DNA of 64,000 nt from Romboutsia ilealis (GTDB taxonomy: Bacteria; Bacillota; Clostridia; Peptostreptococcales; Peptostreptococcaceae), in the NCBI RefSeq assembly GCF_900015215.1, contig NZ_LN555523.1, positions 1,740,381-1,804,380 of the forward strand, given 5' to 3'. The translations under genes were made by a program, and so were the position numbers. This document shows positions 18,433 to 60,327 of the stretch, piece after piece (the stretch's first letter is position 1; every line of letters begins with the position of its first letter). The notes under the pieces are model-generated. The model made no database searches. It saw only the letters and a list, made by a program, of their open reading frames with translations, and was not told the DNA's origin.

Positions 18433-18564
18433 TTATAAAAAATTTGCTTCACTTATGTAAATTAATCATTTCAAAATATTTTTTTCACTCAAAACCAGTT
18501 TATTAATATTACTTACATTCCGAATTCATCCACATTTTTTAAAGTATTATAATGTTCTTAATCT
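18433..18564. repeat. Dispersed intergenic repeat, copy A (core deleted)
   Basis: This element shares most of its sequence with copies at 26485-26620 and 39101-39265. Left end: GCTTCACTTATGT, as in the 39-kb copy. Right part: CAAAACCAGTTTATTAATA, then TTACTTACATT, CATCCACATTTTT and AAGTATTATAAT. The GC-rich middle of the 39-kb copy is missing. It ends about 9 nt before the yjeM-like terminator. Confidence 0.75.
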
Positions 18565-18572
18565 AAAAAATG

Positions 18573-25941: not shown

Positions 25942-26484
25942 AAAATCATCCTTTCTTATTGTTGTATTTTTATTATTACCAATTTGCTTAAGTGTATATG
26001 TAATTAAATATTTTATAATTTTCTTTATTTGCTAAAATAATCTATTTTTACTATATTATATATAATTGTAAAAATATTTATTTAAGAACTTATTTTATAT
26101 CAAATTTACTTGTATATATTTATCTAACTACGATATATATGCTAAATAATTTTTTTCCTAAAAACTAATGATGATAATATTATGATACTATATTTATTTT
26201 GGTTTTATTATTGTAAAAAATCAACTTGCACAATGAGTTAATTAAGTATATCTTACTAAAAACTTGTTATATTAAATTTATTTCCATGGTAATAAATTTA
26301 ATATTATTTATAAGTCAGTTATTTGCTTCTATATTTTACACTATCTAAGTGCATACTCACTATATTTTGTATTTTATGATATATTAATTTAACTTTTTAT
26401 TAGTTTTTACTATATTATCTATACAATATTAATTAATTTTTACCATCAAATCTGACATACAAATATCAAAACAATATATTTTTA
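25942..26484. other. Long non-coding AT-rich interval with a 32-bp near-palindrome
   Basis: No reading frame with a ribosome site was found on either strand. The only structure is at 26271-26302: perfect 12-bp arms ATTAAATTTATT/AATAAATTTAAT around T-CCATGG-T. There is no T-tract, so it does not look like a terminator; a protein-binding site is possible. Confidence 0.4.
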
Positions 26485-26620
26485 TGAAAACGAAACAATT
26501 CATGTCATCAACAATTTCCTACGTTACTCAAAATCTTTTTTACGATTAAAACAATTCTATTGATATTACTTAAATTTAGAACTTATCTACATTTTTTAAG
26601 TATTATAATATCCTTAAGCA
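26485..26620. repeat. Dispersed intergenic repeat, copy B (core decayed)
   Basis: It shares CAAAATCTTTTTTACG, CTATTGATATTACTTA and AAGTATTATAATATCCTTAA with the 39-kb copy. The core is present but eroded: CATGTCATCAACAATTTCC stands where copy C has CATGTCGCCAACGACTTCG, and about 25 nt are lost. It abuts the rny terminator. Confidence 0.75.
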
Positions 26621-26628
26621 TAAAAAAA

Positions 26629-26647
26629 GAGAGGTATTTAACCTCTC
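26629..26647 (-). terminator. Terminator of rny
   Basis: GAGAGGT/ACCTCTC stem (7 bp), 5-nt loop, followed leftward by seven Ts. Confidence 0.85.
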
Positions 26648-39100: not shown

Positions 39101-39265
39101 ATAAAAAATTAGCTTCGCTCATGTCGCCAACGACTTCGTCCGTTGCTTGAGCCACTGCGTGGGCGAAGTATTTCAAAATCTTTTTTACGCTCAAAACCAA
39201 TTTATTGATATTACTTACATTCAGAATTTATCCACATTTTTTTAAGTATTATAATATCCTTAAGC
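39101..39265. repeat. Dispersed intergenic repeat, copy C (most complete)
   Basis: About 165 bp with a GC-rich core unlike the AT-rich surroundings. The core can fold: GCTCA (39117-39121) with TGAGC (39148-39152) enclosing CAACG (39128-39132) with CGTTG (39141-39145). CCAC/GTGG (39152-39155, 39159-39162) and CTTCGC/GCGAAG (39113-39118, 39163-39168) can pair as alternatives. Flanks are shared with copies at 18.4 and 26.5 kb. It abuts the pnp terminator. The minus strand is open for 31 codons (39099-39194), but the other copies are not. Confidence 0.8.
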
Positions 39266-39267
39266 GT

Positions 39268-39297
39268 TAAAAAAGAAGCCTTATAAAAGACTTCTCT
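39268..39297 (-). terminator. Terminator of pnp
   Basis: AGAAG-CTT paired with AAG-CTTCT, one internal mismatch, followed leftward by six Ts. Confidence 0.75.
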
Positions 39298-57803: not shown

Positions 57804-60224
57804 TTACTTATAATTAGGTACTTCAAAGCTTAAATTACTTGATGTGTCATACATACTAATTAATTTATACATTATACCTGATATTCCATTCGCCCAGTTT
57901 ACATCTGTTGCATATTGATGGAATGAATAATCATAATTAAACTTCATTTTATATATAGTATTTTGGTTATACTTGGAACTTTTTATATAATTATCACGTA
58001 TCCATTTAGCCGATCCATCTATAGTAGCTTCAATACTTGTCCATCCATTTGAATATGCTGCCTCTGCACCTGATACATTTGCACTCTTATCTATTGCCCC
58101 TATTCCATAAAAATTATACACAGTAACTGGAGCAGATAAAGGAGTACCTTTATAACTAGTTATTGTTTGTCCTTGAGAAAGTACTGATTTTCCATATCCT
58201 GTTTCCCACATCGCATGAGAAACTAAGTATATTAAATCAATATCATACTTTTGTGCCGCATTTATAAATGCTTTACCTTGATTATAAAATACTGTATTTT
58301 TGCCATTTACCTGTGGTAATGAGTTTAAATATGAATTTAGTTCACTTTCACTTACTCCACCTTTATACGTATCAAGTCTTAAAAATTGCATCATACCTCT
58401 ATCGCTATTTGTAAAGTTATTTGGATTTAGATAGTATTCTAAATCAGATTTACTTGCATGTACATAAGCTCTACTTTGAGCCATATTATATGTTGTTAAA
58501 TCTTCACTACTTCTTGATAAACTTGATGATATAACATTACCACCCTCTAATGCTTTTTTGTATTGAACCTCTACATGATCTTGAAGTGTATAATTTAATC
58601 CTTTATAATTTATAGCCGCTCCGTTTACATTTTCCACACTATCTCCGCCTACTACAGGTGGTACTTGTTCATTACTACTTATTTTATCTAGATACTTAGT
58701 AGCTACATATGCCGTTGTATTTTTGTAATTTATTTTTGACCATCCATTACTTTCTGATATTACTTCTACATTAGTTCCTTTGTCTATCTTTCCTATTGAT
58801 TCATAACTTGTTGATGGACCTTTTCTTACATTTAGCCCATCCGTATTTACTACTTTTATTTCCTTATATTGCTCTGTTGTATCTTCTGTATCTGTACTCT
58901 TTTTATCTAGATACTTAGTTGCTACATATGCCGTTGTATTTTTATAATTTATTTTTGACCATCCATTACTTTCTGATATTACTTCTACATTAGTTCCTTT
59001 GTCTATCTTTCCTATTGATTCATAACTTGTTGATGGACCTTTTCTTACATTTAGCCCATCCGTATTTACTACTTTTATTTCCTTATATTGCTCTGTTGTA
59101 TCTTCTGTATCTGTACTCTTTTTATCTAGATACTTAGTTGCTACATATGCCGTTGTATTTTTATAATTTATTTTTGACCATCCATTACTTTCTGATATTA
59201 CTTCTACATTAGTTCCTTTGTCTATCTTTCCTATTGATTCATAACTTATTGATGGACCTTTTCTTACATTTAGCCCATCCGTATTTACTACTTTTATTTC
59301 CTTATATTGCTCTGTTGTATCTTCTGTATCTGTACTCTTTTTATCTAGATACTTAGTTGCTACATATGCCGTTGTATTTTTATAATTTATTTTTGACCAT
59401 CCATTACTTTCTGATATTACTTCTACATTAGTTCCTTTGTCTATCTTTCCTATTGATTCATAACTTGTTGATGGACCTTTTCTTACATTTAGCCCATCCG
59501 TATTTACTACTTTTATTTCCTTATATTGTTCTGTTGTGGATGGGGTAGTAGTAGATGCTGCCTTTAAATAACCACTAGATACATATGCAGTTTTATTATT
59601 ATAATTAATTTTTGACCAGCCTGCACTTTCTGATATTACTTCTACTTTGTCACCTGTATTTAGCTTTCCTATCGATGCATAACTAGTTGATGGACCAGTT
59701 CTTACATTTAATCCATCTGTATTTACTTCCTTTATTATATAATTTGTAGTAGTTTTATCTATGTATTGACTTGCAACATAACCTAACCTTGAGTCATGCT
59801 TTACTTTTGACCATCCGTTACTTTCTGATATTACTTCTACTTTTTCGCCTTTATTTAAAACCTTTATTATGCTATAACTTGTCCCTGCACCATTTCTAAA
59901 GTTCAGTCCATCTGTGTTTACTATCGCTATATTTGATGAGGTATTAATATTATTATTTGTATTGCTATCTGATATCGATATGTATGAAGATGATGCCCAT
60001 CCTTGCTTTCCTGATGCAGTCTCTATCTTATACCACCCATTAGATGATTGTAATATATTAACTTTATCATTTTTCTTTACAGTTGTTACTATAGTATAAC
60101 TTGTGCTCGGTCCGCTTCTTACATTTAAAGAAGATGCTGTCACTATACCTATATTTAATGCATATGCATTATTAGCCGTCATAGGCATAATCGCTAATGT
60201 TGCTAATGCTATTTTACCTTTCAT
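57804..60224 (-). CDS. Secreted glucosaminidase with seven SH3 repeats
   Basis: A peptidoglycan hydrolase (endo-beta-N-acetylglucosaminidase). 806 residues: signal peptide (KIALATLAIMPMTANNAYA), seven bacterial SH3 domains of about 60-73 residues, four of them almost identical with STDTEDTTEQ-type linkers, and a C-terminal glucosaminidase domain with SHAMWETGYGKS (catalytic Glu). Start is ATG 60224 after AAAGGAG; the longer frame adds 11 residues before the signal peptide. Monocistronic. Likely an autolysin; the SH3 array probably binds wall peptides. Confidence 0.9.
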   Translation of the reverse strand: MKGKIALATLAIMPMTANNAYALNIGIVTASSLNVRSGPSTSYTIVTTVKKNDKVNILQSSNGWYKIETASGKQGWASSSYISISDSNTNNNINTSSNIAIVNTDGLNFRNGAGTSYSIIKVLNKGEKVEVISESNGWSKVKHDSRLGYVASQYIDKTTTNYIIKEVNTDGLNVRTGPSTSYASIGKLNTGDKVEVISESAGWSKINYNNKTAYVSSGYLKAASTTTPSTTEQYKEIKVVNTDGLNVRKGPSTSYESIGKIDKGTNVEVISESNGWSKINYKNTTAYVATKYLDKKSTDTEDTTEQYKEIKVVNTDGLNVRKGPSISYESIGKIDKGTNVEVISESNGWSKINYKNTTAYVATKYLDKKSTDTEDTTEQYKEIKVVNTDGLNVRKGPSTSYESIGKIDKGTNVEVISESNGWSKINYKNTTAYVATKYLDKKSTDTEDTTEQYKEIKVVNTDGLNVRKGPSTSYESIGKIDKGTNVEVISESNGWSKINYKNTTAYVATKYLDKISSNEQVPPVVGGDSVENVNGAAINYKGLNYTLQDHVEVQYKKALEGGNVISSSLSRSSEDLTTYNMAQSRAYVHASKSDLEYYLNPNNFTNSDRGMMQFLRLDTYKGGVSESELNSYLNSLPQVNGKNTVFYNQGKAFINAAQKYDIDLIYLVSHAMWETGYGKSVLSQGQTITSYKGTPLSAPVTVYNFYGIGAIDKSANVSGAEAAYSNGWTSIEATIDGSAKWIRDNYIKSSKYNQNTIYKMKFNYDYSFHQYATDVNWANGISGIMYKLISMYDTSSNLSFEVPNYK
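58685..59528. repeat. 219-bp tandem repeat (about 3.9 copies) inside the glucosaminidase gene
   Basis: Units recur at 58685, 58904, 59123 and 59342 and are almost identical at DNA level, each coding one SH3 domain plus linker (73 residues). Only a few bases differ (for example GPSIS for GPSTS in one unit). This shows recent duplication and likely copy-number variation. Confidence 0.9.
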
Positions 60225-60327
60225 ACCCGTATCTCCTTTCCAAATTATTACATACAATTTTAATTATAGGATATACCTATTAATTAGTAAAGTCAGTTAT
60301 ATTTTTGAGATAGTTATTTTTTATAAT

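What the first reader, a model, noticed from the sequence alone, without database searches (positions are those of the whole stretch)
39101..39265. Dispersed, foldable intergenic repeat family next to terminators (complete copy)
About 165 bp recur at 18433-18564 and 26485-26620 in the same orientation, each abutting the rho-independent terminator of the minus-strand gene to its right (pnp, rny, yjeM). The complete copy has a GC-rich core with nested complementary arms; the others have lost or mutated the core while keeping the flanks. Same placement three times in 21 kb suggests target preference or a post-termination role.
Basis: seen in the sequence. Interest (0 to 1): 0.72.

Follow-up and report, generated by a model that had tools for sequence, protein, structure and literature searches.

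The report
Terminator-hopping one-way miniature mobile element
In this bacterium a short foldable DNA repeat (mostly about 140 or 190 base pairs when full-length) was found at 76 places, most of them directly behind the stop signals of genes and all but one pointing the way the chromosome is copied; it is likely a small parasitic element that jumps as single-stranded DNA into those stop signals.

Summary
The repeat lies at 76 places in the 2.59-Mb genome (two motifs: 69 and 65 hits, reversed controls 0) and in 14-15 of 41 genomes examined, all of the same family. The window's "complete" copy is a subtype lacking about 25 bp of the ~190-bp form. Of 68 copies with a readable start, 57 follow a stable hairpin plus T-tract. 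At 10 of 16 compared sites a relative lacks the element. The right TTTTTT is element-borne; no target duplication or terminal inverted repeat was found. 75 of 76 copies share one orientation relative to replication, switching around dnaA and opposite it, more strictly than genes do. The closing stem pairs the target's T-tract with an A-tract inside the element and has compensatory changes between species. Best explanation: a non-autonomous mobile element inserting as single-stranded DNA on the lagging-strand template, IS200/IS605-like. The enzyme is unidentified: Y1 transposase genes were not found in 7 of 15 carrier genomes, reverse transcriptase in 14 of 15. A post-termination role is untested. 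My paper searches listed no description of this repeat; it is a small mobile repeat of a known general kind with an unusual target and strict polarity.

The parts
39102..39267 (-). Element copy behind pnp (166 bp, subtype without the 25-bp insert of the GC part); sense strand is minus, reads ACGCTTAAGG...GCTAATTTTTTA
39268..39274 (-). Target T-tract (T6) of the pnp terminator plus one extra A before the element
   Evidence: sequence; relative G003 without element reads GGCTTC-T8-ATAAG
39275..39296 (-). Hairpin of the pnp terminator
   Evidence: sequence
39181..39194 (+). Internal arm TTTTTTACGCTCAA (minus strand: TTGAGCGTAAAAAA) that pairs with the left end and with the target T-tract (closing stem)
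   Evidence: sequence; covariation over 46 A+T modules
39228..39236 (+). TTATCCACA in the loop of the A+T half; equals the DnaA-box consensus (recalled)
   Evidence: sequence; local conservation peak; exact in 12 of 46 modules, one mismatch in 26
39109..39168 (-). G+C-rich half with small hairpins (module that also occurs alone in relatives)
18436..18565 (-). Second copy, behind the yjeM-type gene; GC hairpins largely lost, TTTTTTA right end kept
26447..26621 (-). Third copy, behind the RNase Y gene; recognisable element 26490-26621, right end decayed; inserted DNA reaches to about 26447
26622..26647 (-). T-tract (26622-26628) and hairpin (26629-26647) of the RNase Y terminator, target of the third copy
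   Evidence: sequence

Best explanation
This is a family of short non-coding repeats that have inserted, in one orientation, mostly into the T-tract behind intrinsic terminator hairpins, and they are likely moved as single-stranded DNA on the lagging-strand template by a transposase supplied in trans. Shown: 76 places in this genome, related copies in other members of the family, relatives with the same site and no element, an element-borne TTTTTT right end, no target duplication or terminal inverted repeat found, one orientation relative to terminator and replication, and a closing stem with compensatory changes. Inferred: a folded single strand of the sense orientation would be excised and joined behind a T-tract exposed beside a terminator hairpin when that strand is the lagging-strand template; the A-tract inside the element, which can pair with the target T-tract, would help to choose the target; the enzyme would be of the IS200/IS605 (Y1, HUH) kind, resident or since lost. 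Cells probably tolerate the insertions because the place behind a terminator is harmless.
For: Copy number and controls. Target: 57 of 68 copies with a readable start follow a hairpin of -7 kcal/mol or better; 11 of 37 hairpin T-tracts against 1 of 73 others occupied. At 10 of 16 compared sites at least one relative lacks the element. Right T-tract is 6 in 60 of 65 copies whatever the left one is, including all 8 with a left tract of 4 or 5. 75 of 76 copies follow the replication direction, with dnaA at 2,467,370 inside the gap where the strand changes; 73 of 92 genes in my sample do. Two strand blocks also in R. timonensis, 30 of 31 rows listed for its main contig. Closing stem: 146 of 184 Watson-Crick cells against 122.8 +/- 3.6 shuffled (0 of 2000), at most 67 slid. 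G-T cells outnumber A-C cells 40 to 14 in the sense strand (counted). The genome's four Y1 (IS200-type) elements all have the same replication orientation and stand behind T-rich sites; one sits in a T-tract in front of a remnant of this repeat (read by eye). Passages of PMC5371812 and PMC7290912: IS200/IS605 elements prefer the lagging-strand template, follow replication direction, and have neither terminal inverted repeats nor target duplications.
Against: No enzyme is tied to the repeat: Y1 genes were not found in 7 of 15 carrier genomes, R. timonensis with many copies among them, and the Y1 hits of two more carriers are partial or carry stops; 18 of 26 non-carriers have Y1, so there is no positive association. 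The ends of the resident IS200 differ from those of the repeat. The fold of the consensus stands out more on the opposite strand (z -3.2 against -1.2). One copy (1293885) has G after the T-tract on both sides, which hints at copying of a target base; a few right ends lack the A. 8 of 68 copies have no good hairpin. Selection against insertion elsewhere could produce part of the placement bias. PMC7290912 found no strand preference for IS605 in its own organism.
Confidence: 0.55

Rival explanations
1. Site-specific recombination of circular cassettes: a resident recombinase (Xer-like, or an IS110-like enzyme) joins circles that carry a hairpin-TTTTTTA site to terminators, which look like the same site.
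For: The element's own right end (folded part, then TTTTTTA) resembles the target; units stand in tandem sharing one T-tract, as cassettes do; the G after both T-tracts in one copy would fit an exchanged core.
Against: Left and right T-tracts do not match in length where the left one is short; no recombinase was tested for association; strict replication polarity is not a general expectation of such systems.
Confidence: 0.17
2. RNA-mediated retrotransposition: a transcript ending in U6 primes on the A-tract strand of a terminator, using a reverse transcriptase as group IIC introns do.
For: Right end is a T6 like a transcript end; terminator targets and hairpin recognition are known for group IIC introns (recalled; the abstract of PMC10190682 listed speaks of a structured DNA target); a few copies are cut at the left.
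Against: No reverse transcriptase domain (PF00078) was found in 14 of 15 carrier genomes, this one included, whereas 15 of 26 non-carriers have one; cuts are not mostly on one side.
Confidence: 0.08
3. A host-serving structured RNA or back-up terminator kept by selection behind genes.
For: Conserved stems, G-T excess in the sense strand, T6 at the end, sense orientation behind genes.
Against: The sites differ between close relatives; RNA-sense fold of the consensus is not unusual (z -1.2, 24 of 200 shuffles as low); no Rfam match. Expression was not examined.
Confidence: 0.1
4. A DDE-type MITE, for example of IS630, with TA at both junctions.
For: TTTTTTA, hence TA, at both junctions; an IS630-type gene lies inside one copy.
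Against: The two ends are not inverted repeats of each other; the IS630 has its own ends between two TA within the copy and so looks like a passenger (read by eye); hairpin target and strict replication polarity are not expected.
Confidence: 0.05

Closest known systems
IS200/IS605 insertion sequences and their non-autonomous derivatives (PATEs, recalled)
   Same: No terminal inverted repeat or target duplication found, one-sided T-rich target, folded ends, orientation follows replication (passages of PMC7290912 and PMC5371812)
   Different: No Y1 gene with these ends was found; target here is a terminator T-tract with hairpin; enzyme absent from searches of 7 of 15 carriers
REP/BIME and REPIN elements with RAYT transposases
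   Same: Short foldable intergenic repeats in high copy, thought to move in trans as single strands (abstracts listed)
   Different: Much longer and modular, not a tagged 20-40 bp palindrome; no linked RAYT shown; terminator-bound
Group IIC introns
   Same: Prefer terminator hairpins with T-tracts (recalled; structured DNA target in an abstract listed)
   Different: No ribozyme seen (no Rfam match), about 190 bp, no reverse transcriptase found in 14 of 15 carriers
bcr1 (Bacillus cereus group), RUP, BOX and SPRITE (Streptococcus pneumoniae)
   Same: Group-limited intergenic repeats of roughly 50-200 bp, many foldable, some terminator-like (passages of PMC2267715 and PMC10969869)
   Different: In the passages I saw none is described as confined to terminator T-tracts with replication polarity

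Membership tests
IS200/IS605-derived non-autonomous element | No terminal inverted repeat and no target-site duplication | tested here: met
   Ends are not inverted repeats (read by eye); right T-tract is 6 whatever the left is; one copy with G on both sides is unexplained
IS200/IS605-derived non-autonomous element | Orientation follows replication (lagging-strand template) | tested here: met
   75 of 76 copies; dnaA at the strand switch
IS200/IS605-derived non-autonomous element | Ends shared with an element that encodes a Y1 transposase | tested here: not met
   The four Y1 copies of this genome have other ends; the 59 loci behind 75 pattern places show no gene-bearing version except the IS630 passenger; other genomes' Y1 ends were not examined
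IS200/IS605-derived non-autonomous element | Y1 transposase present in carriers | tested here: not met
   Found in 8 of 15 carriers only, two of these partial or with stops
IS200/IS605-derived non-autonomous element | Single-stranded circular intermediate | not testable with these tools
   needs an experiment
REP/RAYT element | 20-40 bp palindrome with a tag at one end and a linked RAYT gene | tested here: not met
   Units of 46 to 214 bp; size and tag as in the abstract of PMC3733652; whether the Y1 genes are RAYTs was not tested
MITE of a DDE transposon | Terminal inverted repeats | tested here: not met
   Left CGCTTAAGG and right end share only a short motif at different distances from the junction (by eye); the inverted pair found is left end against the middle
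Group IIC intron or its derivative | Reverse transcriptase in the genome and intron RNA core | tested here: not met
   RVT_1 not found in 14 of 15 carriers; no Rfam match in the window

The most novel reading that the evidence does not exclude
A terminator-specific, fork-polar miniature transposon that carries a complement of its own target (the A-tract pairing with the terminator's T-tract) as a built-in DNA guide, and that scatters a conserved DnaA box in a hairpin loop, co-oriented with replication, over about 70 sites, where it could recruit or titrate DnaA on single-stranded lagging template.
Probability: 0.12. Interest if true: 0.85.

Novelty: new variant of a known kind. Interest (0 to 1): 0.6.

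Why it matters
It would be a mobile element that avoids harming its host by landing in gene-end signals, and whose direction is a record of replication. The pairing between target T-tract and internal A-tract gives a testable rule for target choice. With some 76 copies in a 2.6-Mb genome it should also matter for RNA 3' ends, rearrangements and strain typing in a gut genus. A terminator-plus-T-tract target is otherwise known to me only for group IIC introns (recalled).

Tried and rejected
Retrotransposition: not favoured, because no reverse transcriptase was found in 14 of 15 carriers. IS630 as parent: the IS630-type gene in L123 splits a copy between two TA and has its own ends, so it looks like a passenger. 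Resident IS200 as direct parent: ends differ. Target-site duplication of the T-tract: rejected from the fixed right T6. Inner stem GATATTA/TAATATC of the local copies: not kept in relatives (by eye). Plasmid or phage origin: plasmids gave 4 records, all Paraclostridium bifermentans, matching only query bases 9-53; phages no match; viral contigs 0 for an exact 20-mer. Known repeat: the seven paper searches that ran listed no description of this repeat, 5 to 20 papers shown per search; four papers were opened, as passages only (PMC2267715, PMC7290912, PMC5371812, PMC10969869); the others were seen as listings and starts of abstracts. Rfam: nothing in the window at gathering scores and nothing over the element at E up to 1 in three loci. 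DnaA box: only a local conservation peak, exact in 12 of 46 modules; kept as an idea. Of 16 own copies compared with relatives, 6 gave no empty site: 827315 is shared with R. timonensis; 820111, 911223, 920983, 927613 and 1758890 were unresolved. Dropped rows: 8 of 76 copies without a readable left end, 11 of 76 without both ends, modules over 93% alike and one row with a lost module.

Full report
What is in the window. The three copies exist as described; the repeat finder links them independently. In the gene sense (minus strand) the copy behind pnp reads: terminator hairpin, T6, one extra A, ACGCTTAAGG..., an A+T-rich half, then a G+C-rich half ending ...GCTAATTTTTTA. The neighbouring genes score as polynucleotide phosphorylase, ribonuclease Y and transporter YjeM. 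No Rfam family reaches its threshold in the window, and none lies over the element in three loci at a relaxed threshold.

How many there are. A similarity search of the own genome scored 40 of 204 candidates and returned 46 matches. Two motifs, one in each half, gave 69 and 65 hits with up to 3 mismatches and 0 for the reversed controls. Merged they are 75 places, and with the window's 26485 copy 76. This is a lower bound for degenerate copies. 63 are full-length by my end criteria: 35 of 189-191 bp, 17 of 139-140 bp and 11 of other lengths from 136 to 214 bp. The subtypes differ by segments of about 25 bp, each with a small hairpin, in the GC half. The window copy is of a subtype without one of them.

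Who else has it. With the 181-bp query 15 of 41 genomes match, this one included (20 candidates scored per genome); with a 21-base core 14 of 41. All are among the 25 genomes of the same family, none among the 16 of other families of the order. An exact 26-mer over the species genomes of genome contigs gave 72 stretches, in records named Romboutsia, Paraclostridium, Terrisporobacter, Asaccharospora, Faecalimicrobium, [Eubacterium] tenue and three Clostridium sp. (records near the own genome may be left out there). 74 distinct copies from relatives, selected for reaching both ends of a profile, mostly show the same two ends. In Paraclostridium, Terrisporobacter and others a GC module of about 46 bp, TTTT-GAGCAACGG...GCGAA-TTTT, also stands alone or in tandem sharing a T-tract.

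Target. Of 68 copies with a readable start 57 follow a hairpin of -7 kcal/mol or better ending at the T-tract; 8 are weaker than -5. Among these 8 is 821771, which lies before the ribosome-binding site of a gene (by eye) and is the one copy against the replication strand. In the window plus three 20-kb blocks (chosen because they hold copies) intergenic leading-strand T5+ runs were occupied in 11 of 37 cases with hairpin and in 1 of 73 without (p = 2e-5); lagging-strand ones in 0 of 14 and 0 of 149 (p = 0.018 for 11 of 37 against 0 of 14). Without the intergenic filter the figures are 11 of 45, 1 of 316, 0 of 30 and 1 of 801. In the window alone 1 of 12 leading and 0 of 5 lagging hairpin sites count as occupied; the other two window copies did not pass the strict match at the junction and were left out of the table.

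Insertion is real. For 16 own copies I looked at the same place in relatives. In 10 at least one relative has the place without the element: 813238, 821771, 918485, 1601263, 1611821, 1615071, 1617848, 1619166, and the window's 26485 and pnp copies. Two of the ten (1617848, 1619166) are filled in R. timonensis. Some of the ten are read from one flank only, and at 813238 and 1615071 R. timonensis has an older related module nearby. At pnp, G003 reads GGCTTC-T8-ATAAGAATTT where the own genome has GGCTTC-T6-A-element-ATAAGATTT. At the RNase Y gene G001, G002, G003 and G015 show no element, while R. lituseburensis has a different subfamily member on the same terminator, so a terminator may be hit more than once. 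Of the six others one (827315) is shared with R. timonensis and five were unresolved.

Ends. In 65 copies with both ends readable the left T-tract is mostly 5 to 8 long, the right one is 6 in 60, followed by A in 62. All 8 copies with a left tract of 4 or 5 have 6 on the right, so the right T-tract belongs to the element and is not a copy of the target. One copy (1293885) has G instead of A on both sides, which I cannot explain. The two ends are not inverted repeats of each other (by eye).

Replication polarity. 75 of the 76 copies have the sense strand in the direction of fork movement: minus hits from 0.05 to 1.09 Mb, plus from 1.21 to 2.41 Mb, minus again from 2.49 Mb. dnaA is at 2,467,370, inside the gap where the strand changes. 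In my 124-kb sample 73 of 92 genes and 37 of 51 hairpin T-tracts have that orientation; even against an assumed 85%, 75 or more of 76 has p = 6e-5, against 90% p = 0.003. R. timonensis shows two blocks in 30 of 31 rows listed for its main contig (list cut, origin not located), and the 7 rows of G001 also form two blocks. The sense strand is then the lagging-strand template, the strand that IS200/IS605 elements prefer (passage of PMC5371812).

Structure. Over 46 A+T modules the closing stem T6-AYGC.../...GCRT-A5 has 146 of 184 Watson-Crick cells at four inner pairs against 122.8 +/- 3.6 with partners shuffled (0 of 2000 reach it) and at most 67 when slid. Arms ACGC/GCGT, ATGC/GCAT, ACGT/ACGT and ACAT/ATGT occur in different species. 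Modules over 93% alike and one row with a lost module had been removed; relatedness is not otherwise corrected for. Counted, G-T cells are 40 and A-C cells 14 in the sense strand; 34 of the 40 are at one pair. Against a sense-strand RNA, the consensus fold stands out more on the opposite strand (z -3.2 against -1.2). The stem takes in the target's T-tract, paired with an A-tract inside the element. Inside the loop TGTGGATAA is a local conservation maximum (0.865 over 32 deep rows), exact in 12 of 46 modules and with one mismatch in 26; its complement equals the DnaA-box consensus as I recall it.

Mechanism. The genome's Y1 (IS200-type) family has four copies, all in the same replication orientation and behind T-rich sites; one (L272) stands in a T-tract directly in front of a remnant of this repeat (by eye). 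That makes single-strand insertion at such sites plausible. But its ends differ, Y1 was not found in 7 of 15 carriers, and 18 of 26 non-carriers have it, so membership in IS200/IS605 is not claimed. Reverse transcriptase was not found in 14 of 15 carriers, this genome included. Tolerance of insertions behind terminators would add selection to any insertion bias.

Verdict. A known general kind of thing, a small non-autonomous mobile repeat, with two unusual traits: a terminator target read in one direction, and strict replication polarity. The paper searches listed no description of it.

Noticed in passing
genome C1 820,111 (-) and 821,771 (+), in L222: Two copies 1.6 kb apart in opposite orientation share the same rare variants; the second is the one copy against the replication strand and sits upstream of a gene.
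   Followed up: partly
window 57804-60257 (-): An 817-aa reading frame holds a 219-bp tandem repeat (58676-59931) coding for near-identical SH3-like repeats (domain name recalled, not scanned).
   Followed up: no
L123 (genome C1 1,839,000-1,842,000): An IS630-type transposase in two frames is inserted between two TA in the middle of a copy of the repeat.
   Followed up: partly
L270-L273 (genome C1 1,013,089; 1,826,462; 1,700,341; 2,422,944): The four IS200-type copies all run with replication and stand behind T-rich sites, two of them behind terminator-like hairpins.
   Followed up: partly
L248, L219, L165 and others (R. timonensis, G001): A sister GC module with a longer hairpin (CAACGGATGTATCC...GGATATATCGTTGG) is also dispersed in Romboutsia; a third A+T module type with GTGGATAA in its loop occurs in Paraclostridium and Terrisporobacter (L186, L170, L157).
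   Followed up: no
L067, L071, L169 and Paraclostridium plasmids: Lone GC modules also lie just upstream of small genes, in or beside a DUF1659-annotated gene in two plasmid records, that is away from terminators.
   Followed up: no
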